NCBI RefSeq assembly: GCF_013404085.1
Contig: NZ_JABFHO010000001.1
Span: 1,871,001-1,935,000, forward strand
From: Winogradskyella helgolandensis
GTDB lineage: Bacteria; Bacteroidota; Bacteroidia; Flavobacteriales; Flavobacteriaceae
Reading direction: 5' to 3'
DNA length: 64,000 nt
Shown: positions 38,306-50,845 of the stretch, piece after piece
Numbering within the stretch: the first letter of the stretch is position 1
How the letters are laid out: each line of letters opens with the position of its first letter
The notes under the pieces: model-generated
What the model was told of the DNA's origin: nothing
The model's database searches: none
Seen by the model: the letters and a program-made list of their open reading frames with translations, nothing else
Position numbers and translations under genes: made by a program

Positions 38306-40282
38306 TTACTCTCCGTCTTTCTTAATATCTTCAATCGCTTCTTTTGAATCCTCTGCTATAATTACAGGAGTTTCAAAAGCGCGTTTCCCAAATATTTTTT
38401 CAAGATTATCTTTGAAAATAACTTCTTTGTCTAATAAGACTTCTGCCAATTCGGTAAGCTTGTCTTTATTCTTTTCTAATAATTTGATAGCACGTTGGTA
38501 TTGTTCTTCAATAATATCAGAAATCTCTTGATCTATAAGTTCTGCTGTCTTTTCACTGTATGGCTTAGTGAAACCATATTCTGACTGTCCTGAAGAATCA
38601 TAATACGTTAAATTACCTACTTTATCACTAAGTCCGTAAACGGTTACCATAGCTCTAGCTTGTTTAGTCACTTTTTCTAAGTCACTTAAAGCACCTGTAG
38701 ATATTTTATCGAAAATTACTTTTTCTGCAGCTCTACCACCTAATGCAGCACACATTTCGTCTAACATTTGCTCTGGGTGTACAATTAAGCGCTCTTCTGG
38801 TAAATACCAAGCAGCACCTAAAGAACGTCCTCTAGGAACTATAGTTACTTTTACTAATGGAGCCGCATGTTCTAGCATCCAACTCACTGTAGCATGACCA
38901 GCTTCGTGGAAAGCGACAGCTCTCTTTTCTGCTGGAGTTATTATTTTGTTTTTCTTTTCTAAACCTCCAATGATTCTATCAACCGCATCTAAGAAATCTT
39001 GTTTGTTTACAGATTTCTTTCCTTTTCTTGCCGCAATTAATGCTGCTTCATTACAAACATTTGCGATGTCTGCACCAGAAAAACCAGGTGTTTGTTTTGC
39101 TAAGAAATCAATATCTAAAGTTTCTTCTTTTTTAAGTGGACGTAAATGCACTTCAAAAATTTCTTTACGTTCTCTAACATCCGGAAGATCTACATAAATT
39201 TGACGGTCAAAACGACCAGCTCTCATTAATGCACTATCTAATACATCTGCACGGTTTGTTGCTGCTAACACGATAACGTTTGTGTTAGTACCAAATCCAT
39301 CCATTTCGGTTAAGAGTTGGTTTAGTGTGTTTTCGCGTTCATCGTTAGAACCAGACATGTTATTTTTTCCTCTTGCTCTACCAATAGCATCAATCTCATC
39401 AATAAAGATAATTGAAGGTGATTTTTCCTTGGCTTGCTTAAATAAATCTCTCACTCTAGAAGCACCAACACCAACAAACATTTCCACAAAATCAGATCCT
39501 GATAATGAAAAGAAAGGGACTTGTGCTTCACCAGCAACAGCTTTTGCCAACAACGTTTTACCAGTTCCTGGAGGTCCTACTAATAATGCTCCTTTAGGAA
39601 TTTTACCACCTAAGGCCGTATATTTTTCAGGGAATTTTAAGAAGTCTACAATCTCTTGGACTTCTTCTTTTGCTCCTTCTAAACCTGCAACATCTTTAAA
39701 TGATGTCTTTGTGTCTATTTTCTCATCAAAGAGTTTTGCTTTAGATTTTCCAATATTGAAAATCTGTCCACCAGCTCCTCCGCCTCCGCCACCAGACATA
39801 CGACGCATTATAAAAATCCATACTCCAATAATTAGGACAAATGGTAATAATGTTAACAAAAAGTCTCCCCAAACATTATGTTCAGTTTCATAAACTAGTT
39901 CGGTATCGAGGTTATTGGTTTTAATAACTTCATTGACTTCTTTTTCAAAATTCTGAAGATCACCAAATTCAAACTTGTAGTTCGGAACAGGAGCAACAGA
40001 TGGAAGTATAGAATTCGTTTCTGTTTTTTTATGTTTCGATTGTTCTTTAGCTTCCGCTGTTAAATAAACTCTAGCTTCTCTTTTATTTACAATTTCAATT
40101 TTTGAAACTTCTCCTTGACTTAGATAATCTAAGAATTGTGCAGGAGTTGTTTGTGTACCGGTAGAATCACCAAATCCACCAGAAAAAATCTGGATGGATA
40201 AGAATACAACAATGATTATTCCGTAAATCCAATACGGGTTTAATTTTGGTTTTTTGTTTAAATTTTTATCGTCTTTAGCCAT
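38306..40282 (-). CDS. ftsH: ATP-dependent zinc metalloprotease FtsH
   Basis: The start is placed at 40282 (MAKDDKNLNKKPKLNPYW); upstream in-frame codons overlap rsfS and are not conserved. The 658-residue membrane protease has two transmembrane segments (IYGIIIVVFLSIQIF; LLPFVLIIGVWIFIMRRM) flanking a periplasmic domain. The AAA domain has Walker A GPPGTGKTLLA, Walker B IIFIDEIDAIG and the second region of homology ATNRADVLDSALMRAGRFDR. Zinc site HEAGH with the third ligand Asp follows. It degrades misfolded membrane proteins and regulators. Confidence 0.97.
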   Translation of the reverse strand: MAKDDKNLNKKPKLNPYWIYGIIIVVFLSIQIFSGGFGDSTGTQTTPAQFLDYLSQGEVSKIEIVNKREARVYLTAEAKEQSKHKKTETNSILPSVAPVPNYKFEFGDLQNFEKEVNEVIKTNNLDTELVYETEHNVWGDFLLTLLPFVLIIGVWIFIMRRMSGGGGGGAGGQIFNIGKSKAKLFDEKIDTKTSFKDVAGLEGAKEEVQEIVDFLKFPEKYTALGGKIPKGALLVGPPGTGKTLLAKAVAGEAQVPFFSLSGSDFVEMFVGVGASRVRDLFKQAKEKSPSIIFIDEIDAIGRARGKNNMSGSNDERENTLNQLLTEMDGFGTNTNVIVLAATNRADVLDSALMRAGRFDRQIYVDLPDVRERKEIFEVHLRPLKKEETLDIDFLAKQTPGFSGADIANVCNEAALIAARKGKKSVNKQDFLDAVDRIIGGLEKKNKIITPAEKRAVAFHEAGHATVSWMLEHAAPLVKVTIVPRGRSLGAAWYLPEERLIVHPEQMLDEMCAALGGRAAEKVIFDKISTGALSDLEKVTKQARAMVTVYGLSDKVGNLTYYDSSGQSEYGFTKPYSEKTAELIDQEISDIIEEQYQRAIKLLEKNKDKLTELAEVLLDKEVIFKDNLEKIFGKRAFETPVIIAEDSKEAIEDIKKDGE

Positions 40283-40299
40283 TCGTAGCGTTTCTCGTT

Positions 40300-40671
40300 T
40301 TAGTAACTTGTTTCTATTCGGGTTATTTTTGCATCTCCCCAAAGCTCTTCAATATCGTAGTATTCTCTAATGTGTTTTTGAAACACATGTACAACAACAT
40401 TGACGTAATCCATTAAGACCCATTCGGCATTTTCAGTACCTTCAACATGCCAAGGTTTGTCTTTAAGTGTTTTGCTTACTTGTTTTTGTACGGAACCGAC
40501 GATTGCGTTTACTTGCGTGTTTGAAGACCCTTCGCAGATAATAAAATAATCACAAACAGTATTTTCTATTTCTCTTAAATCTAATATTGTTATCTCTTTT
40601 CCTTTAACATCTTCAATACCTCCAATAATTGATGTAATGAGTTGGTCTGTAGGGATTTTATCTTTCGTCAT
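40300..40671 (-). CDS. rsfS: Ribosomal silencing factor RsfS
   Basis: The 123-residue RsfS binds L14 and blocks subunit joining in starving cells. It has the family blocks EITILDLREIENTVCDYFIICEG, SSNTQVNAIVGSVQK, PWHVEGTENAEWVLMDYVNVVVHVF and FQKHIREYYDIEELWGDA. The promoter is 18 nt upstream and ftsH follows after 17 nt, giving a two-gene operon. Confidence 0.97.
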   Translation of the reverse strand: MTKDKIPTDQLITSIIGGIEDVKGKEITILDLREIENTVCDYFIICEGSSNTQVNAIVGSVQKQVSKTLKDKPWHVEGTENAEWVLMDYVNVVVHVFQKHIREYYDIEELWGDAKITRIETSY

Positions 40672-40691
40672 TAATTTGTATTAATTTTGTG

Positions 40692-40699
40692 CAAAGTTA
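40692..40699 (-). promoter_or_regulatory. -7 promoter element of rsfS-ftsH
   Basis: On the minus strand it reads TAACTTTG, a full consensus match, with an 18-20 nt leader to the rsfS ATG. Confidence 0.65.
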
Positions 40700-40765
40700 T
40701 TATTTTTTTAGTTCTTGTATGCGCTTAATGTCATAAGAAAACCATAAAATAAAATTACCTATTAA

Positions 40766-41497
40766 ATGTACATAATCAAACTTAATGCCATTGACTCTAC
40801 AAATACGTATCTCAAAGATTTGTCAACCGTATCATTGCCTAAAGATTATACGGTTGTAGTTGCTGAGTTACAGACAAAAGGTAGAGGTCAAATGGGAGCC
40901 AAATGGAACGCGGAAAGTGGTAAGAACCTTACAGCGAGTGTGTTTAAAAGACTCCCGTTTTTTAGTGTTACAGAACAGTTTTATATTAGTATGGCTGTTT
41001 CTTTGGCAGTTATTAAGGCATTAAGGACCTTTAAAATACCTCAATTACATATTAAATGGCCTAACGACATTTTGTCAGCAGACAACAAGTTGTGTGGTAT
41101 TTTAATTGAAAATGTCATAAAAAATAATAACCTGCAAGGTTCCATAATAGGATTTGGACTGAATGTTAACCAGAAATTTTTCGAGAATTTACCTCAGGCA
41201 TCGTCTATGAGTTTATTAACTGGAGTTATTTATGATAAAGACGAAGTGCTTTCAGAAATATTAAAACAATTGGAAATTCATTTTAATTTATTAGAATCGA
41301 AGAAACACTCTGAAATTAAAACGGAATACGAAAGTCTCCTTTTTAGAAAAAATAAGCCATCAACTTTTAGAACTTCTAAAGATGATAGCTTTTCTGGAAT
41401 TATCCAAGGTGTTACTGAAAACGGTCAATTACAAGTTTGGACAGAAGATGGTATTATTAAAACCTTCGACCTTAAAGAGATTAAGTTACTATATTAA
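40766..41497 (+). CDS. birA: Biotin-[acetyl-CoA-carboxylase] ligase
   Basis: The 243-residue enzyme activates biotin to biotinyl-AMP and transfers it to the carboxyl carrier protein. The biotinoyl loop is TKGRGQMGAKWNAESGKNL; IKWPNDILSADNKLCGILIEN carries the catalytic Lys. No N-terminal winged helix is present, so it is a class I ligase without repressor function. It is divergent from rsfS. Confidence 0.95.
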   Translation: MYIIKLNAIDSTNTYLKDLSTVSLPKDYTVVVAELQTKGRGQMGAKWNAESGKNLTASVFKRLPFFSVTEQFYISMAVSLAVIKALRTFKIPQLHIKWPNDILSADNKLCGILIENVIKNNNLQGSIIGFGLNVNQKFFENLPQASSMSLLTGVIYDKDEVLSEILKQLEIHFNLLESKKHSEIKTEYESLLFRKNKPSTFRTSKDDSFSGIIQGVTENGQLQVWTEDGIIKTFDLKEIKLLY

Positions 41498-41524
41498 GTT
41501 AATCTTGATTTCTTCTTGTTATGA

Positions 41525-41920
41525 CTAAACCTCTGTTTTCATATTGGTTACTAACGTCTCAATAAATTTACTGATTGGGCCTTTTATCATCATGCCCATC
41601 ATAGCGTTAAATTCGCCTTCAAAATTTAATTTAACTTCAGTTTTGTTAGGTTCAGCTTCTGTAATATCTGCAACTAATGCAAAGTCTAATTTTCCGCCGG
41701 CAGCTCCTAAAACGATCTTGCTATTTGGAACAGCTTCCTTTTTCTTTAATACAATTTCCGGCATTCCTTTTAACGCGAATAGAAACTTGTCGTTATCTAA
41801 AACTTCAAATTTACTAATGTTTTCAGGCATTAAGCTTTCAAAATTTTTAACATCAGAAAGAAAGTTGAATGTTTCTTCTGCAGATTTATCTAAAGTTACT
41901 TTTGGTGATTCTAATTTCAT
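41525..41920 (-). CDS. SRPBCC superfamily protein
   Basis: The 131-residue protein has the Bet v1/START-like helix-grip pattern: SAEETFNFLSDVKNFESLMP near the N-terminus, a central beta sheet (KFEVLDNDKFLFAL, SKIVLGAAGGKLDFALVADI) and a long C-terminal helix (MIKGPISKFIETLVTNMKTEV). Such proteins bind hydrophobic ligands; the ligand here is unknown. It lies upstream-to-downstream between pyrE and birA. It is conserved in flavobacteria next to pyrE as far as I recall. Confidence 0.8.
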   Translation of the reverse strand: MKLESPKVTLDKSAEETFNFLSDVKNFESLMPENISKFEVLDNDKFLFALKGMPEIVLKKKEAVPNSKIVLGAAGGKLDFALVADITEAEPNKTEVKLNFEGEFNAMMGMMIKGPISKFIETLVTNMKTEV

Positions 41921-42029
41921 GTTTTTATCGTTAAGTTGTTTGTTGTAGAGGTGTTAAGTTGTAGTGTTTCGATAAATTTTTAAATACCGACTTTAAGTCT
42001 ATGCAACTAAACGTCTCCGCATCATTATA

Positions 42030-42674
42030 TCAATTAGCGTTCCATTCACTAGGATTGGCGTTCCATTGTGCTAAAATGTCTTGTTGGTCTTTAGTTATAT
42101 AAAAGGTGTCTACAGCTTGTTCTAGCAAGTTTTCATAATTGCCAAGCGTGTGTAATTCAACATCGGCATCTTTAAAATTCTTAGACGCTATCTCAAATCC
42201 GTAAGAGAATATGGCAACCATACCTTTTACATGCACTTCAGCCTCTTTTAAAGCTTTTACGGCATTAAGACTGCTCATTCCTGTACTGATTAAATCTTCT
42301 ACAACAACTACAGTTTGTCCTTTTTCAATATACCCTTCAATTTGGTTTTGGCGACCATGTTTTTTCGCTTCTGGTCTTACATAAACAAATGGTAGATTTA
42401 AATATTCTGCTACTAATGCACCAATACCAATAGCTCCTGTTGCAACTCCTGCAATTACATCTGGTTTACCATAAAGCTCTTCTATATTTTTTGCAATGGT
42501 TGCTCTAATATAGTTTCTAATTGGTGGAAACGATAGTACAATTCTGTTGTCGCAATAAATTGGTGATTTCCAGCCAGAAGCCCAAGTAAAAGGATCGTTG
42601 GGTTGTAATTTTATAGCATTAATTTGCAATAAAACTTCGGCTGTTTTTTTGGCGGTATCTTTGTTAAAAATCAT
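42030..42674 (-). CDS. pyrE: Orotate phosphoribosyltransferase
   Basis: The start is placed at 42674 (MIFNKDTAKKTAEVLLQI), because the eight residues upstream from an ATG at 42698 would run through the -7 element. The 214-residue enzyme converts orotate and PRPP to OMP. Marks are WKSPIYCDNR, the flexible loop RPEAKKHGRQNQIEG and the PRPP motif TVVVVEDLISTGMSSL. It lies 109 nt upstream of the SRPBCC gene on the minus strand. Confidence 0.96.
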   Translation of the reverse strand: MIFNKDTAKKTAEVLLQINAIKLQPNDPFTWASGWKSPIYCDNRIVLSFPPIRNYIRATIAKNIEELYGKPDVIAGVATGAIGIGALVAEYLNLPFVYVRPEAKKHGRQNQIEGYIEKGQTVVVVEDLISTGMSSLNAVKALKEAEVHVKGMVAIFSYGFEIASKNFKDADVELHTLGNYENLLEQAVDTFYITKDQQDILAQWNANPSEWNAN

Positions 42675-42678
42675 GTTA

Positions 42679-42686
42679 CAAAAATA
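42679..42686 (-). promoter_or_regulatory. -7 promoter element of pyrE (possible leaderless start)
   Basis: On the minus strand TATTTTTG is followed by TAAC and then the pyrE ATG, the same 4-nt spacing seen for rarA and rlmB. Confidence 0.6.
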
Positions 42687-42795
42687 ATGATTTTTCAAGG
42701 TTAGAAAATTTTAATCGAAAATAAATTTCATTTCAAATAGTTTCTCGTAAAAAATAATATTTTTACAAAAGGAAAGTTGAAAACATACCTAAACG

Positions 42796-43377
42796 ATGTA
42801 CACAATATACGTAGGTGATAAACCTATCATTTTAACTACTGAAACTAAAAAAGAAACTGATTTTAAATCTTTTCTTTTGAAGTCTGTAAATATTGGTAAG
42901 GTTATAAAGACCTTAAATAACACAGATTTAAAAGCTGTACACTTAATTCATAAGAATGAAGATAAGCTGCTGAGCAAGTTTTTAAAGCTTTTACCTAATG
43001 TAGTTGCAGGTGGTGGAAAAGCTTATAATTCTAAAAACGAAATTCTTTTTATTTACAGAAATGATAAATGGGATTTACCTAAAGGAAAAGCAGAACGTAA
43101 AGAAACAATAGAAGAAACTGCTATACGGGAAGTAGAAGAAGAGACAGGAGTTGAATATTTAAAAATAACCAAACCACTACCAACAACTTATCATATTTTT
43201 AAGCGGAACGGCAAACATAGAATTAAAATTACGTATTGGTTTGAAATGAAAACCGATTTTGAGGGTGAATTATTTCCACAAGAAAATGAAGGTATTACTA
43301 AAGTAGAATGGTTAGATGCAGCAGCGTCTCAAAAAGCTTTAGATAATAGTTATGCTAATATTAGAATATTGGTTTAA
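42796..43377 (+). CDS. Nudix hydrolase
   Basis: The 193-residue protein carries a full Nudix box at about residues 97-119 (G-5x-E-7x-REVEEETG, read from GKAERKETIEETAIREVEEETG in two pieces). An N-terminal region of about 70 residues (IYVGDKPIILTTE) is typical of a flavobacterial subfamily. It hydrolyses a nucleoside-diphosphate-linked compound; the substrate is not predictable. Its stop overlaps the convergent amidohydrolase stop by 4 nt. Confidence 0.92.
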   Translation: MYTIYVGDKPIILTTETKKETDFKSFLLKSVNIGKVIKTLNNTDLKAVHLIHKNEDKLLSKFLKLLPNVVAGGGKAYNSKNEILFIYRNDKWDLPKGKAERKETIEETAIREVEEETGVEYLKITKPLPTTYHIFKRNGKHRIKITYWFEMKTDFEGELFPQENEGITKVEWLDAAASQKALDNSYANIRILV

Positions 43378-44072
43378 AGTGTCTTAGGGTGGAAGAGAAT
43401 ACTTTCAATTGCTTTCAACAAGTCTTGTTTGAGGTTTAAAGCCATAACATTATTGTGACTGTATTTTTGATTAACCTCAATCTCAATACCTAAATAATTT
43501 GTTGGAAATTGCTTTCTTAAAAAAGAGGTGAATCCATCCGATTTTCCAAGATATGGGTAATTAAATCGCACGTTTAAATTTGGGTTTTGTTCTAGGAGTC
43601 TTATTTTAAGTTGTTTGCAAAATTCTTTTTCCTTTTTATTGCGGGAATCATAAAGTAATCCAATGTCAGCTTTACGTTCTTCATTATTTAGGTTTTGAAT
43701 AAAACTATGAATGGATAAATGCAGTACTTGCTGTTCGATTTTAATGAATTCTGCTATTTTATATTCAATTTCAGTTCTATAAGGAAAATAATAGATTTTA
43801 AGTATTTCCGATTTCTCATGTTTACTTAAGCCGTTACTAAACTCTGAAAAAAGTTGCTTGCTAAATAGTGAACGATTCAACTCTACCAACAAACGACTCG
43901 TCGTACTAAAATATGATGCATCAGACAACGGTTCTAAATGTTGAAATAGATGTAACACTCCCAAATCATAACCACGATGAGATTCTAAAACTGTTTTATT
44001 AGTGTTGAAGTGCTTTTTGTAAGTCTCAGGAATTTCATTTCCACCATGCTCACATGTTAAAATCAACTTCAT
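43374..44072 (-). CDS. N-formylglutamate amidohydrolase-like protein
   Basis: The 232-residue protein matches the FGase (COG3741-like) family: LTCEHGGNEIPETY at the N-terminus with likely metal/catalytic His and Glu, SHRGYDLGVLHLF, RLLVELNRSLFS and the HLSIHSFIQ strand. The family hydrolyses N-formyl-glutamate or related amides. The start overlaps the GCS2-gene stop by 4 nt (ATGA), so it is co-translated with the ligases. In this place it may trim or deprotect the product of the two upstream ligases, rather than act in histidine breakdown, since no hut genes are seen. Confidence 0.85.
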   Translation of the reverse strand: MKLILTCEHGGNEIPETYKKHFNTNKTVLESHRGYDLGVLHLFQHLEPLSDASYFSTTSRLLVELNRSLFSKQLFSEFSNGLSKHEKSEILKIYYFPYRTEIEYKIAEFIKIEQQVLHLSIHSFIQNLNNEERKADIGLLYDSRNKKEKEFCKQLKIRLLEQNPNLNVRFNYPYLGKSDGFTSFLRKQFPTNYLGIEIEVNQKYSHNNVMALNLKQDLLKAIESILFHPKTL

Positions 44073-45295
44073 GATTGAAACAAGTCGTTAGTTTTTAAAC
44101 AATTCTGCATATTTCGATATACTGAAATAATGTGTCCTTCAGACGTGTCATTTCCTATAGCTTTTAATAGTCTTGTTGCTAACGTGCCTTCTTCTAAAAT
44201 GAACTCTATAGCATCATGATGTGATTTGTGTAATTTTGGTTTTACGATTTTATACAAGTGTTTCCAAACGTCGTTTACGGTTGAAGGTGATTTTATTCTG
44301 AATAATTTTAAGTATTCCTTATTTTCAATTTTAGAGTTTTCTGCATATTTTATAGCATCATTTAGAAGGGGAAATAAATCTTCTTTTATCCACGATTTTT
44401 GAGCTTTTAAAGAACATAGTTTTTTACTAACCAAAACTTTTAAAACTTCGATTACAAAAGCGCAAATAGCAATATCTGCCTTAGGACATTCTTGAATATC
44501 CATTAAACGAATTTCAATGGCATTTCTATCAAAACGCGCAATGGCTCCACGAGAGTTTAAAAAGTGTTGGTCTAGAATATTGTTTTTATCATAAGGTTTA
44601 ATCGCTTTTTTTATAGGTTCAAAAATCGTTGCATGATAATCTAATTTTGAAAACACACGCTCAGGAATTACTAAACCTGTCAACTCCGGAATTTCCTTTT
44701 GATTTGTTTTATAAAATTCTAATCGTGTATCCTTAAAACCAGTAATGTTGCCTTCTAATATTGGCGAACTTGCACAAAGCCCTGGTAATAATGGTAAGAT
44801 GATTCTAATGGCTGCGTGTAGTTTTTCAAATTCTTTATCGTCATAAAATGGTAAATTAATATGTGTGCTTTGTACATTACTCCAACCGTGGCCTTTGCAA
44901 TTAAAAATAGTATTGTAAAGCGCGTAAACTTCACTGTAACTATGTTTCCAGAGTTGTGTATCTGTATCTGGATTCATTAATGGATGTGAGGCAGAACCTA
45001 AAAGTTGTAAGTTCAACGGTTGTAAAAGCGCATCGATTTCTAGAATGTTTTTGTGGAATTTCTCCGATAAGTCATCTGTGCTTTTGGTGGGGCCGTTTGT
45101 TTTTAGTTCAATAACATGAGCTACTAATTCGTTACTCCATGCAATATTTCCATTTTCGATATCTGCTTTTAGTTCTCCTGCTTTTAGGGTTAAGAGTTCA
45201 TCAACTTGTGGTGCAACTTTAAAATTGTCATTTTTAACAAGCATATATTCGAGTTCAATGCCGTAAACATCGAATAGGTGAAAAGGTTTCCTCAT
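44069..45295 (-). CDS. Carboxylate-amine ligase of the glutamate-cysteine ligase 2 (GCS2) family
   Basis: The 408-residue protein has the GCS2 N-terminal motif FDVYGIELEYMLVK, the NGNIAWSNELVAHVIELK-type segment, a GHGWSNVQSTHINLPF strand and GAIARFDRNAIEIRLMDIQECP, where substrate and Mg-ATP ligands are expected. These enzymes join the gamma-carboxylate of glutamate (or a similar acid) to an amine. It lies 2 nt after the ATP-grasp gene and overlaps the amidohydrolase gene. The true substrate pair is unknown; a simple glutathione pathway is possible but no GshB-type partner of the usual kind is present. Confidence 0.85.
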   Translation of the reverse strand: MRKPFHLFDVYGIELEYMLVKNDNFKVAPQVDELLTLKAGELKADIENGNIAWSNELVAHVIELKTNGPTKSTDDLSEKFHKNILEIDALLQPLNLQLLGSASHPLMNPDTDTQLWKHSYSEVYALYNTIFNCKGHGWSNVQSTHINLPFYDDKEFEKLHAAIRIILPLLPGLCASSPILEGNITGFKDTRLEFYKTNQKEIPELTGLVIPERVFSKLDYHATIFEPIKKAIKPYDKNNILDQHFLNSRGAIARFDRNAIEIRLMDIQECPKADIAICAFVIEVLKVLVSKKLCSLKAQKSWIKEDLFPLLNDAIKYAENSKIENKEYLKLFRIKSPSTVNDVWKHLYKIVKPKLHKSHHDAIEFILEEGTLATRLLKAIGNDTSEGHIISVYRNMQNCLKTNDLFQS

Positions 45296-45297
45296 AA

Positions 45298-46743
45298 TTA
45301 ATCTAATCGTTTTTTTAACGCTGTGAGAATTTCGGTATAAACCGAATCTCCGTAATAGGCATCTTCTACACCAAAATCGATATTTGGATTATCGTTGATT
45401 TCTATAACCATTAATTTATCATCTATTACTTTTATATCAATACCGTAAAGACCTAATCCCATAAGTTTTGCAGATTTTAATGCCATATCAATGACGTTTT
45501 TTGGCACCTCTTCAATAGGTAAACAATCTGCATTGCCATCTTGTTCATTTTTGTCTGTTGCATTCCAATTATAAATTTGCCAATGCCCTTTTGCCATGTA
45601 ATATTTGCAAGCATAAAAAGGTTTGTTGTCAATAATACCAATACGCCAATCGTAGTCTGAAGGGCAAAATTCTTGAGCAATGATTAAATCGGATTCCTTT
45701 AGCATTTCAGTAACTAATGCATTAAATTCTTCTTTGTTTTTTGCTTTCTTCACTCCGAATGAAAATGTAGAATCTGGTGCCTTTAGTACACAGGGTAAGC
45801 CCGTTTGTTCTAAAACAGAATTACGGTTATTGCTGTGTACAATAATTGTTTTTGGAGTGCTAATGTTAGCGTTGTTCATCGCTTCTGCCATGTAAACTTT
45901 GTTACAACATTTTAAGATCGCATCCGGATAATCAATAATAGCAAGGCCTTCTTGTTGTGCTTTTCTTGCAAAAGTGTAAGCTTCATTATTCACTTCTGTA
46001 CTTTGTCTCAAAAAAAGTGCATCAAAAGAAGAAAGTCGTGATAAATCTTTAGGTTCAATAATCTCGGCATAGATATTCATCTTCTCTGCGATTTCTATAA
46101 ACTTTTTTAAGGCTTTAGGATTGCTTGGAGGTGCAGGATCATTTGGATTTACTAATATGGCTAAGTCAAAGTCGTAATTAGCAATTTTTGCAGTATCATA
46201 ACGTTTTTTTGCGAAATATTGATTCGCAAATTCTTGAACACTTAATATATGCTCCGCAGGAATTTCGGCTTCTGAAATAGCCTTAACACTTTGGATATTC
46301 CACTTGGTTGTATGGCTAAAGTTCACACGTAAAAATGGGACTTGAAAATGCTTGTAAAAAAGCGCACTTAAAGCCTTGTATTTATGAGCTACGTTTTGTC
46401 CAAAGTAAATGCTTAAAGTAAAATTTTGCGACTTTATATTTTTTAAACTTTGCTGAAGGACATCATCAAACTCGTCCGAAACAATTCTAACGAGTTTTAA
46501 AGCTTTTAAATCCACAATGTTTTTTGTAGTTGGAATTGGTAGATGTCCTCTGGCTTCAGCCAAAAGTGATACGTAATAGCCTTTAGATTGGTACGAGTAA
46601 TTCTTACACAAATTAAAAATTCGTGCTTTCTTTAATAAAGAATACTTAGGGTTGGTTAGATAATCTTGAGAGGAAATTACTGTAATATTATCAATTGAAA
46701 AGTTCCATTTTTCAGGTTGATTTACAACAATGTATTTATTCAT
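45298..46743 (-). CDS. RimK-like ATP-grasp ligase with RLAN N-terminal domain
   Basis: The 481-residue protein has an N-terminal RLAN-type domain (residues about 1-160; LLAEARGHLPIPTTKNIVDL) and a C-terminal RimK-like ATP-grasp domain (about 200-480). ATP-grasp features are GLPCVLKAPDSTFSFGVKK (the nucleotide-binding lysines and loop), LIIAQEFCPSDYDWRIGI and VIEINDNPNIDFGVED (Mg ligands Glu and Asn). RimK-like enzymes form peptide or amide bonds on small molecules or protein tails. It is the first gene of the three-gene ligase operon. Confidence 0.9.
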   Translation of the reverse strand: MNKYIVVNQPEKWNFSIDNITVISSQDYLTNPKYSLLKKARIFNLCKNYSYQSKGYYVSLLAEARGHLPIPTTKNIVDLKALKLVRIVSDEFDDVLQQSLKNIKSQNFTLSIYFGQNVAHKYKALSALFYKHFQVPFLRVNFSHTTKWNIQSVKAISEAEIPAEHILSVQEFANQYFAKKRYDTAKIANYDFDLAILVNPNDPAPPSNPKALKKFIEIAEKMNIYAEIIEPKDLSRLSSFDALFLRQSTEVNNEAYTFARKAQQEGLAIIDYPDAILKCCNKVYMAEAMNNANISTPKTIIVHSNNRNSVLEQTGLPCVLKAPDSTFSFGVKKAKNKEEFNALVTEMLKESDLIIAQEFCPSDYDWRIGIIDNKPFYACKYYMAKGHWQIYNWNATDKNEQDGNADCLPIEEVPKNVIDMALKSAKLMGLGLYGIDIKVIDDKLMVIEINDNPNIDFGVEDAYYGDSVYTEILTALKKRLD

Positions 46744-46997
46744 TTAGAGCGCATTACGCTATTATAATTTTAAGTAAATGTATATTATTTTTTGATTGGT
46801 TTTACAGCAGTATAAAATTATTTTTATATTTTTTTTTGTGTATGAGATTGAGGCTTTTTGTGTTTCAAAAGCAGAGCAAGCCAATTAGAATTCTGCTATA
46901 CGAAGAACGGCTCATACGTGTAACAAATTATAGTTTTAATAGTTTAGGTTTTTATAAAACAATAGTGTGTCCTTACTAATAGTTTGAGAATAATGTA

Positions 46998-47525
46998 TTA
47001 ATGAAGCGTATGATTTGAAGCGGCATACTCGCCACAATATTTCACAGGGACTCCAGCATCTTTGGCATCTTTTGCTCTTAATAAAAACTCTCGAGTTGTT
47101 TTTTCTGAGCCTGCATAATGACCTCTAAACAGTGGTAGGATTTTAGCTGTCTCTGCTTCTTTGAGTCTTGTGTTAAATTCTTCAATTGATTTGTCAGAAA
47201 TCGCATATACACCTCTATATATAGGCTCAATAGATGCTTCTTTTGCGTCTTTAATTCTTGAGCTAAACTCTTCTAAAGACTTGTTAGATGCTGCATAATG
47301 GCCATAGACAATTGGGATTAGTATGGATCGTTTTGCTTCATTAATTTTTTCGTTAAATTCTTCTACGGATTTGTTAGAAGCTGCATATAAGCCTCTGAAT
47401 GCTGGTATAATTGACGTTTTTTCAACTTCTTTCATTCGTGTTGCATAATTCGTGTTGTTGCTTGATGTACAAGAGACAAAAGGAAATACCATTAAAAAGG
47501 TTAAGATTAAAATTAGTGTTCTCAT
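46998..47525 (-). CDS. Lipoprotein made of 30-residue repeats (unknown function)
   Basis: I do not recognise the family. The 175-residue protein has a lipoprotein-like signal (FVSC, Cys at 19), then repeats with an exact period of 30 residues: units at 41-70, 71-100, 101-130 and 131-160, a half unit at 161-175 and a half unit at 27-40. The consensus is P-x-x-x-G-x-Y-A-x-S-x-K-S-x-E-E-F-x-x-R-x-K-E-A-x. Each unit looks like a short strand (RGxYA) followed by a helix (KSxEEFNxRxKEA). It lies 152 nt downstream of the M14 peptidase and 254 nt upstream of the ligase operon, all on the minus strand. Confidence 0.75.
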   Translation of the reverse strand: MRTLILILTFLMVFPFVSCTSSNNTNYATRMKEVEKTSIIPAFRGLYAASNKSVEEFNEKINEAKRSILIPIVYGHYAASNKSLEEFSSRIKDAKEASIEPIYRGVYAISDKSIEEFNTRLKEAETAKILPLFRGHYAGSEKTTREFLLRAKDAKDAGVPVKYCGEYAASNHTLH

Positions 47526-47677
47526 AATAGGTAGATTAATTGTATTTGATAGCCATAATGCTATGACCCTTCCTGTCTTTTCAACAGGTTTAGTTACTTA
47601 AAAGACTTACGATTTTAGTGATATAATTTGTGAAAGATTTTAAGCTAAGTTAATTTAAAAATTTTATAAATTCAAGT

Positions 47678-49435
47678 CTATTTTAAGCGATAAATAGGAT
47701 ATTGCATATGTGCAGCTTCGTAGTGTTTACTCTGCTTGTACAACCAGTCTAATTGTTGATACCAATTGTTGGCAAAATCTTCATCGTAGCTGATTTTTAT
47801 ATTGTATTCTATTTGAAGTTTCGGGTTTTCCTTTAAAAGTTGTTCTGCTCTGTCTTCCCATACATAAGGTGAGAAGCCTTCTTTTTGTTGTAAAATAGTA
47901 TCAAAGAAATTCCAGTTAAAAAAGGAATCAGGAGCTGACGGTTCTAAGGTTTCTAAAAGATAACGAATTGTTTTTTGATTTGTAGAGATTAGATAATCAC
48001 CTTTTCTAAAGGTTACCTTATTTTCAGATGTGTTTACGATTGTATTAAAATGCGCATAATGACCTTCGTAAGCAGATTTTCGAGTTTCGAAGCTTCCTAT
48101 TTTATATGATTCAACAGTGAGTGTGGTATCGTTTTTAAATTGGGTGAATTCGACGTTATTCAATTTTAATAGATCGATGACGTTATACCAACCTTGTGGA
48201 ATAATATAAGCTTCGGGAATAGTGATGGAGTCTGTTGCTTTAAAATAATTTTGATAGGTAATGTCTTTTGTAAAGGGTTTAGATCGATCGTATTTTAAAC
48301 GTTTTGCTCCTGTAAATTCACTTGGAATCATTTCTCCTTCGTAACCTTTAAATTTTAGAGTTGAGGTTCGGCTTGTATCTAAAGCCCAAGTTAATGGATA
48401 GGTGTCGCCAGCTGCCCATAATTTGGCTTGTGCTTTTCTAAGTTGCGTAATTTTATCACCTTGTTCTTCTGTGATTTCAATCATGCTTTTCATTAATTCG
48501 TAAGTGCCTTCTACACGTTGTTTATAAGGTTTTAACATGTGTGTTTCTACCATCATTCCTAAGGTGTTAAAGAGCGTTGTGTAACCTGTGGAATAACGCG
48601 GTGAATCTAAAAATTGCGTAAATCCAGAATCTGGTGTGCGATTAAAAACGTTAACATATGGTGTGATATCCCACGATTTTTCTTCGAGTTTTTGCTCTAG
48701 CGTTGGCATCATTTCGGTATGAATAAATTCTCCTAATTCACCTCCTAATTTATTATGTTGGGTAAATAAATGCGTTAAGGTATATTGATAATCTGCTCCG
48801 TTGCTGACGTGATTGTCTATAAAAACATCCGGTTGTACCAAATGAAAAATTTGAGCAAAGGCTTTTGCATTTTTGGTGTCGGATTTTATAAAATCGCGAT
48901 TCAAATCATAGTTTCTAGCATTGCCTCTAAAGCCGTATGTTTTTGGGCCGTTTTGGTTGGTACGGGTTGTTGAGTTTCGATTCAAGCTTCCTCCAACATT
49001 ATAAATAGGAATTGTAACGATAATTGTACTTTGGGGAGCTTTAATTTTGCCGTCAGCAATATCTCTAAAGAGCATCATAGTCGCATCAATACCATCAGAT
49101 TCACCAGGATGGATACCATTATTAATTAATAAAATTCTATTGTTTTGTCTTATCGTTTCAAAATTATCACCAGACGCTTTCATGTTTAAGGTTGCCATAT
49201 GAAGTGGTTTCCCTGCGTCCGTTTCACCAATCTCTTGCAATGATATTTCTGGATAGCTGTTGGCTAAATCTTGGTAATATTTTATAGTTTCATAATACGT
49301 TGCGGTTTCTAATCCTTCACTTTTTTCGAAAATTGTGGTGAAATCGACTTCGATGTTCTTGTTTTCTATATTTTGTTTTTCAATATTTTTATTACAAGCA
49401 ACTAACAATAAGGTTAATACCAATAGTTTTTTCAT
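47678..49435 (-). CDS. M14 family zinc carboxypeptidase, lipoprotein
   Basis: The 585-residue protein has a lipobox LLLVACN (Cys 14), so it is probably anchored to a membrane facing the periplasm or exterior. The M14 domain shows the first zinc ligands in NGIHPGESDG (HxxE), the Arg/Asn-Arg substrate site in NRDFIKSD, the third zinc ligand His in VFIDNHVSNG, and a catalytic Glu region MMVETHML near 300. The last 250 residues are a domain of unknown role. The expected reaction is removal of C-terminal residues from peptides or murein peptides. Confidence 0.88.
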   Translation of the reverse strand: MKKLLVLTLLLVACNKNIEKQNIENKNIEVDFTTIFEKSEGLETATYYETIKYYQDLANSYPEISLQEIGETDAGKPLHMATLNMKASGDNFETIRQNNRILLINNGIHPGESDGIDATMMLFRDIADGKIKAPQSTIIVTIPIYNVGGSLNRNSTTRTNQNGPKTYGFRGNARNYDLNRDFIKSDTKNAKAFAQIFHLVQPDVFIDNHVSNGADYQYTLTHLFTQHNKLGGELGEFIHTEMMPTLEQKLEEKSWDITPYVNVFNRTPDSGFTQFLDSPRYSTGYTTLFNTLGMMVETHMLKPYKQRVEGTYELMKSMIEITEEQGDKITQLRKAQAKLWAAGDTYPLTWALDTSRTSTLKFKGYEGEMIPSEFTGAKRLKYDRSKPFTKDITYQNYFKATDSITIPEAYIIPQGWYNVIDLLKLNNVEFTQFKNDTTLTVESYKIGSFETRKSAYEGHYAHFNTIVNTSENKVTFRKGDYLISTNQKTIRYLLETLEPSAPDSFFNWNFFDTILQQKEGFSPYVWEDRAEQLLKENPKLQIEYNIKISYDEDFANNWYQQLDWLYKQSKHYEAAHMQYPIYRLK

Positions 49436-49474
49436 AGTTTAAAAGTTTAGTTAAAATTACTTATATTTATTAAC

Positions 49475-49843
49475 ATGAAAACATATAAACTTAGCTTTGG
49501 TATAATTACTATACTTAAGACTAATCTTGCTGAGGTCGTTATAAATGAAGGTGTTGTGATGGATTTGAAGATGATAGAGGAATATCATGCTTTTTTGATT
49601 GAAAAATTAGAAGCTCCATTTTCTTTATTGATCAATAAAAAGCATTCCTACACATACACATTTGAAGCTCAAAAATCTATTGTAAATATTGAAGGAGTAA
49701 AAGCTATGGCTGTTATAACACATGCTTATGTTTCTAAATTGGCAACGGATGTTTTAATAAATATGAATCGAGATAGTGATTGGAATATTAAGATGTTTCA
49801 GAGTAGGGAAGAGGGCTTAGAGTGGATAGAAAATCATGACTGA
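49475..49843 (+). CDS. SpoIIAA/STAS-like small protein
   Basis: The 122-residue cytosolic protein has alternating short strands and helices (TNLAEVVINEGVVMDLKMIEEYHAFLIEKL, then SLLINKKHSYTYTFEAQKSI) that resemble the SpoIIAA-like proteins of Bacteroidota. The final EEGLEWIENHD helix is typical. The role is unknown. It is divergent from the M14 gene with 39 nt between starts; a near-consensus -7 element (TATATTTA, 49462-49469) ends 5 nt before its ATG. Confidence 0.65.
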   Translation: MKTYKLSFGIITILKTNLAEVVINEGVVMDLKMIEEYHAFLIEKLEAPFSLLINKKHSYTYTFEAQKSIVNIEGVKAMAVITHAYVSKLATDVLINMNRDSDWNIKMFQSREEGLEWIENHD

Positions 49844-49912
49844 TTTTATGTTCGTTTTCATATAAAAATATGATAACTTCGCGCTTCATTTTACAACCCT
49901 ATTCATAAATAA

Positions 49913-50845
49913 ATGCAACAAACTACAAATACTATTTTAATGATTCGTCCTGTAAGTTTTAGGATGAACGAGCAAACCGCTGTCAATAATTATTTTCAAG
50001 AAGATTTAGGTTATAAAAATGCCGAAATTAATACTAAAGCACAGGTGGAATTTGATGCTTTTGTTGAAAAACTACGTTCAGTTGGTATTAATGTGGTTGT
50101 GGAAGAGGATGATAAACTTAATGATACTCCAGATTCTATTTTTCCGAATAATTGGGTGAGTTTTCATGCGAATGGTGATGTCGCAAAATATCCGATGTTT
50201 GCTGAAAACAGAAGGCGAGAGCGCAGAGATGAGGTGTTTATTAGATTAGAAGAAGAAGGTTTTGTGATCGAAAATATAGTTGATTATACATCTGCTGAGC
50301 ACGAAGGTTTTTTTCTAGAAGGCACAGGAAGTATGGCTTTAGATCGCGAAAATAGAATTGCATATTGTGCGTTGTCAGCAAGAGCAGATGAGGAATTGTT
50401 TATTGAGTTTTGTGAAGATTTTGAATATACACCAGTTATTTTTATTGCTAATCAAACCGTAGAAGGGAAGCGTTTACCAATTTACCACACTAACGTAATG
50501 ATGTGTTTGGCGGAAACGTTTACTGTGATTTGTTTAGATACTATTGACGATAAAAAAGAGCGTAAAAACGTTGTAAAGCATTTAAAGCAAGATGGTAAAG
50601 AAATCATTTCTATTACAGAAGATCAAATGCATCAGTTTGCAGGAAATATGTTGCAATTACGCGGTGAAAACGATCAACGTTATTTAGTGATGAGTGAAGC
50701 TGCACATAATAGTTTAACTAAAACTCAGATTGCTAATATTGAAAAACATTGCCCTATTTTATCGAGTTCTTTAGAAACGATTGAAACGTGTGGAGGTGGA
50801 AGTGCACGTTGTATGATGGCTGAAGTGTTTTTGCCGAAAGCGTAA
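49913..50845 (+). CDS. ctlX: Citrulline utilisation hydrolase CtlX-like (pentein superfamily)
   Basis: The 310-residue protein matches the CtlX group of the amidinotransferase superfamily. It has NTILMIRPVSFRMNEQTAVNN at the N-terminus, DSIFPNNWVSFHANG (substrate Asp/Asn region), EGFFLEGTGSMALDRENR (catalytic Glu), LPIYHTNVMMCLAE (catalytic His) and the C-terminal nucleophile Cys in CGGGSARCMMAEVFLP. The name and substrate rest on the family; hydrolysis of citrulline or another ureido/guanidino compound is inferred. Confidence 0.88.
   Translation: MQQTTNTILMIRPVSFRMNEQTAVNNYFQEDLGYKNAEINTKAQVEFDAFVEKLRSVGINVVVEEDDKLNDTPDSIFPNNWVSFHANGDVAKYPMFAENRRRERRDEVFIRLEEEGFVIENIVDYTSAEHEGFFLEGTGSMALDRENRIAYCALSARADEELFIEFCEDFEYTPVIFIANQTVEGKRLPIYHTNVMMCLAETFTVICLDTIDDKKERKNVVKHLKQDGKEIISITEDQMHQFAGNMLQLRGENDQRYLVMSEAAHNSLTKTQIANIEKHCPILSSSLETIETCGGGSARCMMAEVFLPKA

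What the first reader, a model, noticed from the sequence alone, without database searches (positions are those of the whole stretch)
43374..46743. Three-gene amidoligase operon of unknown product
A RimK-like ATP-grasp ligase with an RLAN-type N-terminal domain, a GCS2-type carboxylate-amine ligase and an N-formylglutamate amidohydrolase-like enzyme are packed with spacings of 2 nt and -4 nt, so they act as one unit. Two ATP-dependent ligases and one amide hydrolase are the minimum set to build and deprotect a short peptide or amidated metabolite. Comparative work on amidoligases has noted such associations, but I know of no assigned product. Nothing here points to histidine breakdown (no hut genes) or to a usual glutathione pathway (no GshB-type gene).
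Basis: partly seen in the sequence, partly recalled or inferred. Interest (0 to 1): 0.7.

Follow-up and report, generated by a model that had tools for sequence, protein, structure and literature searches.

The report
Peptide-ligase operon lacking its peptidase gene
Three neighbouring genes, probably from the marine bacterium Winogradskyella, form a widespread but uncharacterised enzyme set that most likely builds a small glutamate-capped peptide; elsewhere the set usually includes a fourth gene for a protein-cutting enzyme that is missing here, and the product is unknown.

Summary
The three-gene operon is real and the genes belong together. An RLAN/RimK-like ATP-grasp ligase, a GCS2 ligase and an FGase-type amidohydrolase lie 2 nt apart and 4 nt overlapping. 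Of 164 distinct ligase loci examined, 103 carry GCS2 beside the ligase, and 74 of those also carry FGase. Elsewhere a fourth gene, a C39-like cysteine peptidase, sits directly upstream (68 of 72 GCS2 loci outside Flavobacteriaceae); it was found in 0 of 31 Flavobacteriaceae loci and in 0 of 10 of their whole genomes searched.

The ligases have two nearly exclusive partners: GCS2 (103 loci) or a matching GNAT acyltransferase (55). None is labelled as having both, though two GCS2 loci have another GNAT domain nearby. FGase was never found with the GNAT type (0 of 55). One GNAT clade sits among GCS2 rows. I read this as two ways to cap an amino group, gamma-glutamyl or acyl, while the ligase extends a carboxyl group: glutathione-like or NAAG-like logic, product unknown. 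Ordinary glutathione synthesis is not supported: no GshB-type hit except RimK, and the GCS2 is below all GCL cut-offs. 'No hut genes' is wrong genome-wide: hutH is 1.4 Mb away. The association was probably noted in 2009 (recalled; paper not held).

The parts
45298..46743 (-). RLAN domain (res. 26-166) + RimK-like ATP-grasp ligase, 481 aa; first gene of the operon
   Evidence: K282, K321, R246 kept in all 158 distinct GCS2- and GNAT-type loci, and R367, D436, E448, N450 in 157 of 158 (L039, a truncated frame, is gapped)
44069..45295 (-). GCS2-family carboxylate-amine ligase, 408 aa; second gene
   Evidence: own divergent family (alignments A2, A5); accompanies the ligase in 103 of 164 distinct loci
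43374..44072 (-). FGase-type (PF05013) amidohydrolase, 232 aa; third gene; the only PF05013 match of the genome
   Evidence: E8, H9, H32, H118, H122 kept in 77 of 77 aligned
46744..46818 (-). conserved promoter/leader block of about 75 nt directly upstream of the operon; sequence further upstream is not alignable
   Evidence: alignment of 14 upstream regions; no Rfam match

Best explanation
The operon makes a small cytosolic peptide-like metabolite capped at its amino end by a gamma-glutamyl group. GCS2 uses ATP to join a glutamate side-chain carboxyl to the amine of an unknown amino acid or amine X. The RLAN ATP-grasp ligase activates a carboxyl group as acyl phosphate and adds an amino acid, giving a gamma-Glu-X-Y type product (glutathione-like logic). 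FGase, a probable metal amidohydrolase, hydrolyses a glutamyl amide of this product for trimming or turnover. In most lineages a C39-like cysteine peptidase (Cys-His-Asp) feeds or trims the substrate. Flavobacteriaceae, including this organism, dispense with it and carry a remodelled stretch (residues 247-285) beside the putative acceptor site of the ligase. SHOWN: gene unit, partner pattern, kept catalytic residues, no C39 match. INFERRED: every reaction, their order, X, Y and the product.
For: Unit: GCS2 with the ligase in 103 of 164 distinct loci and FGase in 74 of the 103; distance-matrix correlation RLAN/GCS2 r=0.76, permutation maximum 0.07. Partner pattern: GCS2 103, GNAT 55, both 0, neither 6; 39 of 40 fetched Pseudomonadota loci carry a GNAT match in the fetched stretch and none has GCS2; three of three long GNAT proteins scanned are GNAT-DUF3335 fusions. 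GCS2 found in 0 of 12 GNAT-fused genomes, controls 2 of 2. An 11-row GNAT clade is parted from the other GNAT rows by GCS2 rows. FGase 74/103 against 0/55. RimK residues that hold the glutamate chain (R64, R189, N262) align with R246, R367, N450, kept in 158, 157 and 157 of 158 loci. The 15 largest small-ORF clusters near the operon hold none shared across lineages; no riboswitch match.
Against: No reaction was tested; acceptor and product are unknown. The partner pattern rests on few events (minimum 3 changes on the tree), so exclusivity is weaker than the raw counts suggest. Two GCS2 loci do have a GNAT domain nearby: L133 (42.7 bits, 2.7 kb upstream) and L163 (a GNAT-nitrilase fusion between GCS2 and FGase that my GNAT profile does not match). 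RimK's own acceptor is a protein C terminus, so a protein substrate is not excluded. RimK S68, another contact, is not conserved. FGase is missing from 29 of 103 GCS2 loci, 22 of them with more than 4.4 kb of sequence after the ligase.
Confidence: 0.45

Rival explanations
1. [quoted passage not shown]
For: ATP-grasp domain closest to RimK/LysX/MptN families; RLAN is an extra N-terminal domain that could bind a partner; C39 peptidases cut peptides; the GNAT domain of the one fusion scanned against NCBIfam (L059) scores best as RimI-like, 56.6 bits, below the 86.4 cut-off.
Against: No target gene or small ORF shared across lineages among the clusters printed (20, 15). The genome has its own RimB-RimK pair. 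GCS2 and FGase families mostly act on small molecules (recalled).
Confidence: 0.22
2. Transient gamma-glutamyl protection: GCS2 protects an amine, the ATP-grasp ligase performs the real conjugation, and FGase removes the glutamate (logic of putrescine utilisation and butirosin, recalled).
For: FGase occurs with GCS2-type and not GNAT-type loci (74/103 against 0/55); the GCS2 and FGase genes are adjacent, here with a 4-nt overlap.
Against: 29 of 103 GCS2 loci lack FGase; one locus has FGase but no GCS2 (L123); by eye, no amine-oxidising or tailoring genes among the 20 recurring neighbour clusters printed.
Confidence: 0.2
3. Glutathione-like thiol system (gamma-Glu-Cys-X) with the C39 enzyme acting like a phytochelatin synthase.
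For: GCS2 plus ATP-grasp plus papain-fold enzyme mirrors GSH and phytochelatin synthesis; phytochelatin synthase belongs to the same papain-like superfamily (PMC10318531 passages).
Against: No GshB ATP domain (PF02955) other than RimK (GshF was not searched); bacillithiol BshC is present in G000 and 3 of 3 relatives searched; GCS2 far below all GCL cut-offs; the C39 profile matches C39 peptidases in the PDB, with no phytochelatin synthase among the 15 hits. Some hosts of the system do have GshB (Thiobacillus and Nitrosomonas genomes).
Confidence: 0.08
4. The FGase is simply the last enzyme of histidine degradation and sits here by chance.
For: hutH is in the genome and this is the only PF05013 match.
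Against: FGase accompanies GCS2 in 74 of 103 loci; no hut gene by eye among the 20 recurring neighbour clusters printed; three ureohydrolases are present, the formimidoylglutamase model being the best hit of two of them, below its cut-off.
Confidence: 0.04

Closest known systems
Predicted amidoligase gene neighbourhoods (Iyer et al. 2009, Mol BioSyst 5:1636; content recalled, paper not held)
   Same: As I recall, RLAN-RimK ligases linked to GNAT, C39-like peptidase, GCS2 and FGase were already noted there; it is cited in PMC10318531 (passages) for DUF3335-GNAT fusions.
   Different: No product assigned as far as my searches went. The partner pattern, the GNAT clade among GCS2 rows and the lack of C39 in Flavobacteriaceae were worked out here and may or may not be in that paper.
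Glutathione synthesis (GshA/GCL + GshB)
   Same: A gamma-glutamyl ligase family plus an ATP-grasp ligase.
   Different: Not a GCL equivalog, no GshB found, extra RLAN domain, extra hydrolases.
NAAG synthesis (NAT8L + RIMKLA/B) and N-acetylglutaminylglutamine amide synthetase (TIGR03103), recalled
   Same: GNAT plus RimK-type ligase makes an N-capped dipeptide; this is the logic I propose for the GNAT branch of the RLAN family.
   Different: The window enzyme and the one GNAT-RLAN fusion scanned show no TIGR03103 match; the window has GCS2 instead of GNAT.
RimK / RimB-RimK
   Same: ATP-grasp core and carboxylate-holding residues R64, R189, N262.
   Different: RLAN domain; RimK equivalog score 26.8 against a cut-off of 331; S68 not conserved; a true RimK exists elsewhere in the genome.

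Membership tests
RLAN-type ATP-grasp (PF14401) | RLAN domain N-terminal to a RimK-like ATP-grasp | tested here: met
   159.4 bits, cut-off 25
GCS2 (PF04107) | GCS2 domain over curated cut-off | tested here: met
   94.3 bits, cut-off 21
Glutamate-cysteine ligase / YbdK equivalogs | score over NCBIfam cut-offs | tested here: not met
   TIGR02050 51.2 of 176.4; TIGR02048 39.5 of 249
Glutathione pathway | gshB in the genome | tested here: not met
   only PF02955 hit is a RimK of 375.5 bits; bifunctional GshF not searched
FGase (PF05013) | FGase domain over cut-off | tested here: met
   67.9 bits, cut-off 28.9
HutG-type N-formylglutamate hydrolase of histidine breakdown | role in a hut pathway | tested here: inconclusive
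   hutH present but 1.4 Mb away; ureohydrolases also present
Four-gene C39-RLAN-GCS2-FGase system | C39-like peptidase upstream of RLAN | tested here: not met
   no match in 31 of 31 Flavobacteriaceae loci or in 10 of 10 genomes, 4 of 4 others positive
Four-gene C39-RLAN-GCS2-FGase system | RLAN, GCS2 and FGase in order on one strand | tested here: met
RimK S6 ligase | NF007764 equivalog cut-off | tested here: not met
   26.8 of 331 bits
NAGGN synthetase | TIGR03103 match | tested here: not met
   not among the hits at E 0.001 for the window protein or the GNAT-RLAN fusion L059
Gamma-glutamyl peptide synthesis | enzymatic formation of a gamma-Glu amide | not testable with these tools
   needs enzyme assay or metabolomics

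The most novel reading that the evidence does not exclude
RLAN ligases define an unrecognised cross-phylum class of N-capped short peptides with two interchangeable caps, gamma-glutamyl (GCS2) or acyl (GNAT). Flavobacteriaceae make a distinct member with a changed acceptor, coupled to loss of the C39 peptidase.
Probability: 0.33. Interest if true: 0.75.

Novelty: new variant of a known kind. Interest (0 to 1): 0.5.

Why it matters
An enzyme set of this breadth (RLAN matches in 44 of 395 genomes sampled from the window's phylum, and in 56 of 299 from the phylum of a Thiobacillus genome) implies a common metabolite or modification that nobody has named as far as my searches went. The partner pattern turns an open-ended question into a direct test: does the same ligase family accept gamma-glutamylated substrates in one lineage and acylated ones in another?

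Tried and rejected
Rejected: ordinary glutathione synthesis; chance cluster; RiPP or other co-encoded peptide (the 15 largest clusters of small ORFs near the operon are frames beside flanking genes within Flavobacteriaceae, plus one set of five Balneola-type loci that include one duplicate; none spans lineages); riboswitch control (0 Rfam matches in 40000-50000; only a tRNA in 10 related loci); mobile element (M14-like and Nudix genes flank the operon in 6 of 7 same-genus relatives fetched; the seventh keeps the Nudix); NAGGN synthetase.

Led nowhere: structure prediction of the RLAN ligase (queue full each time, so fold searches were never run); the key 2009 paper is not held; ten literature searches gave no product for this gene set as far as the titles, abstract starts and the passages that I opened show. 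Papers seen as passages only: PMC12239564, PMC10318531, PMC12096838, PMC3597751, PMC12153261, PMC5131308, PMC9756463, PMC4431377; PMC10092738 as passages (108) and its section 3.3 (111).

Of 59 Pseudomonadota places 40 were fetched, picked by me down the score list and leaving out the Thiobacillus one, which is of the GCS2 type (it is in the set as L145). Of the 44 matching genomes, 42 were fetched and one is the window's own; G407 (20 bits, below cut-off) was left out. Some loci are cut by contig ends, and L041 by my own cut. L086 (ATP-grasp without RLAN domain) and L039 (truncated frame) are in the counts but not in the tree. Five duplicate loci were removed before the counts and part of 115 still held them. 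The label GNAT needs more than 80 bits within 8 kb in the first 128 loci, but any match (88 bits or more) in the fetched stretch of the 40 Pseudomonadota loci; in 17 of those 39 the GNAT frame lies on the other strand. The C39 profile scores the DUF3335 type only weakly (17-22 bits), so a distant C39 relative could be missed.
Full report
What is there. Three minus-strand genes run 46743 to 43374: an RLAN plus RimK-like ATP-grasp ligase (481 aa), a GCS2-family ligase (408 aa, 2-nt gap) and an FGase-type amidohydrolase (232 aa, 4-nt overlap). None of the three shows an obvious signal peptide by eye. The closest named genome is Winogradskyella ursingii (89% identity in the ligase), and two named Winogradskyella loci (L088, L089) fall in the same 10-row starred clade as the window, so the window is probably from that genus (inference). 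The ligase is present in 7 of 24 same-genus relatives and 0 of 15 genomes from other families of the order. In 6 of the 7 same-genus relatives fetched, the same M14-like and Nudix genes flank the operon, so the locus looks fixed rather than mobile. A block of about 75 nt directly upstream of the first gene is conserved in 14 aligned upstream regions while the sequence beyond it is not, which suggests one own promoter.

Conservation. RLAN matches occur in 44 of 395 genomes sampled across the phylum (43 over the cut-off, the window's genome included) and in 56 of 299 from the phylum of G432, a Thiobacillus genome. I collected 48 neighbourhoods (named genomes; titles include Flavobacteriia, Cytophagales-type, Ignavibacteria, Desulfobulbaceae, Fibrobacter, Planctomycetota, Verrucomicrobia, Omnitrophota, Thiobacillus, Nitrosomonas) and 40. 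With the window these give 169 rows, 164 distinct after removing five duplicates. The ligase is accompanied by GCS2 in 103, by a GNAT match in 55, by both in 0, by neither in 6. Of those six, L131, L146 and L153 have only 1372, 81 and 1649 bases behind the ligase; L137, L123 and L208 have ample sequence and no GCS2. FGase is within reach in 74 of 103 GCS2 loci, 0 of 55 GNAT loci and 1 of 6 others (L123); 22 of the 29 GCS2 loci without FGase have more than 4.4 kb downstream, so it is truly not adjacent there. Pairwise distances of the four proteins correlate (RLAN/GCS2 r 0.76 over 106 loci, 0.51 without Flavobacteriaceae; other pairs 0.52-0.73; permutation maxima 0.23 or less, duplicates not removed).

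A fourth gene. Outside Flavobacteriaceae a C39-like cysteine peptidase of about 235 aa sits directly upstream of the ligase in 68 of 72 GCS2 loci (offsets 545-1205 bases). The four exceptions are L041, cut by my own stretch, and L113, L117 and L126, which have room. Its Cys, His and Asp are kept in 72 of 73 (one gap), 73 of 73 and 73 of 73 rows. It was found in 0 of 31 Flavobacteriaceae loci and in 0 of 10 of their whole genomes, with 4 of 4 other genomes positive. On the tree these 31 rows form one clade at 100 (SH-aLRT) whose nearest rows carry C39, so one loss is the simplest reading; the tree is a quick one and unrooted. Eleven ligase positions are fixed in this clade and rare (5% or less) in the other 72 GCS2 rows; seven of them (247, 248, 250, 255, 272, 280, 285) fall in 39 residues (scan-statistic p 0.00025, computed after seeing the data and ignoring the shared ancestry of the rows). 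That stretch starts beside R246, which aligns with RimK R64, and contains position 250, which aligns with RimK S68; both contact the glutamate chain in the RimK structure (PMC10092738 section 3.3; alignment). GCS2 has only two such positions and FGase none. I read this as a change of acceptor in the ligase that came with the lack of C39; this is an inference.

Two alternative partners. In the Pseudomonadota sample 39 of 40 fetched loci have a GNAT match near the ligase and none has a GCS2 or FGase match; in 17 of the 39 the GNAT frame is on the other strand. Three of three long GNAT proteins scanned are GNAT-DUF3335 (C39-like) fusions, and one short one is GNAT alone. In Balneola-type and some other genomes the GNAT is fused to the ligase itself (13 distinct loci). 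Twelve of those genomes were searched whole: GCS2 0 of 12, controls 2 of 2; C39 0 of 12 apart from one 20-bit marginal hit in G319, control 1 of 1. Eleven GNAT rows (10 fused plus L149) are parted from the other GNAT rows by GCS2 rows on starred branches; 9 of these 11 genomes are among the 12 searched. Three other fused rows group with the Pseudomonadota GNAT rows on a long branch, and L148's GNAT is 2.8 kb away and may be unrelated. The tree needs at least 3 partner changes, so this is a pattern of few events, not of 158 independent ones, and the direction of change is not shown. Against strict exclusivity: of the 102 GCS2 loci rechecked, L133 has a weak GNAT match (42.7 bits) 2.7 kb upstream, and L163 has a GNAT-nitrilase fusion between GCS2 and FGase that my GNAT profile does not match.

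How it probably works. K282, K321 and R246 of the ligase are kept in all 158 distinct GCS2 and GNAT loci, and R367, D436, E448 and N450 in 157, L039 being gapped there; which of these bind ATP, metal or substrate is partly recalled. Six GCS2 positions checked are kept in all rows without gaps, except two rows with Lys for Arg at one of them; the first motif (GxExE) could not be counted by that script but is invariant in the 40 sequences. Seven FGase positions are kept in all rows without gaps. An acyltransferase and a gamma-glutamyl ligase that replace each other both put an amide on an amine, so the common job of the partner is most simply to cap an amino group, and the job of the RLAN ligase is to extend a carboxyl group. 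This is the logic of NAAG (GNAT plus RimK-like) on one side and of glutathione (GCS2-type ligase plus ATP-grasp) on the other; both comparisons are recalled knowledge. FGase, tied to the GCS2 type, would act on the glutamyl part of the product. No reaction has been tested and the product is unknown.

What it is not. Not a usual glutathione pathway: the single PF02955 hit of the genome is RimK in a RimB-RimK pair (the RimB name is by eye), and bacillithiol BshC is present. Not a GCL or YbdK equivalog; the YbdK-type enzyme of this genome is another gene. Not shown to belong to histidine breakdown, although hutH exists 1.4 Mb away, this is the only PF05013 match, and the ureohydrolases leave the hut end-step open.

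Novelty. The 2009 amidoligase survey (Iyer et al.) could not be read; I recall that it noted RLAN, GNAT, C39, GCS2 and FGase neighbourhoods. PMC10318531 (passages) repeats the DUF3335-GNAT link. My ten searches found no assigned product in the titles, abstract starts and passages seen. I therefore file it as a variant of a known, functionally unassigned kind.

Noticed in passing
G000:C1:2815776-2819612 (L001): A second amidoligase-like cluster in the same genome: a 412-aa protein that looks ATP-grasp-like by eye (no Pfam or NCBIfam hit, Lys/Ala-rich tail), a YbdK-type GCS2 (NF010039, 537.7 bits) and a class-I glutamine amidotransferase, in a row.
   Followed up: partly
window 46998-47525 (-): Small predicted lipoprotein with about five degenerate repeats (YAASNKS-type, by eye) just upstream of the operon; a match was seen in only one relative's operon locus (L083), so not part of the system.
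   Followed up: partly
window 45889-46005 (codons 247-285 of the ligase): Seven of eleven Flavobacteriaceae-specific substitutions in the ligase cluster beside the putative acceptor site, in the same clade that lacks the C39 peptidase.
   Followed up: partly
L163:10775-12340: In one Planctomycetota locus a GNAT-nitrilase fusion (CN_hydrolase 124 bits) sits between GCS2 and FGase.
   Followed up: partly
L149:738-6273: A Verrucomicrobia locus with an argG-like gene, GNAT, RLAN ligase, a lysA-like decarboxylase and a dapA-like gene in a row (named by eye); might hint at an amino-acid substrate, or be chance.
   Followed up: no
G000:C1:3319926-3321386: hutH has no other hut gene by eye in the 14.5 kb around it; which enzyme finishes histidine breakdown here is open.
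   Followed up: partly
PMC9756463 and PMC12153261 (passages): A 'RimK family protein' next to a GNAT is listed on Pseudomonas fosmids selected for pyomelanin, and a 'RimK family' ligase is among the proteins most raised in a Pseudoalteromonas pellicle biofilm; I did not check whether either is of the RLAN type.
   Followed up: no
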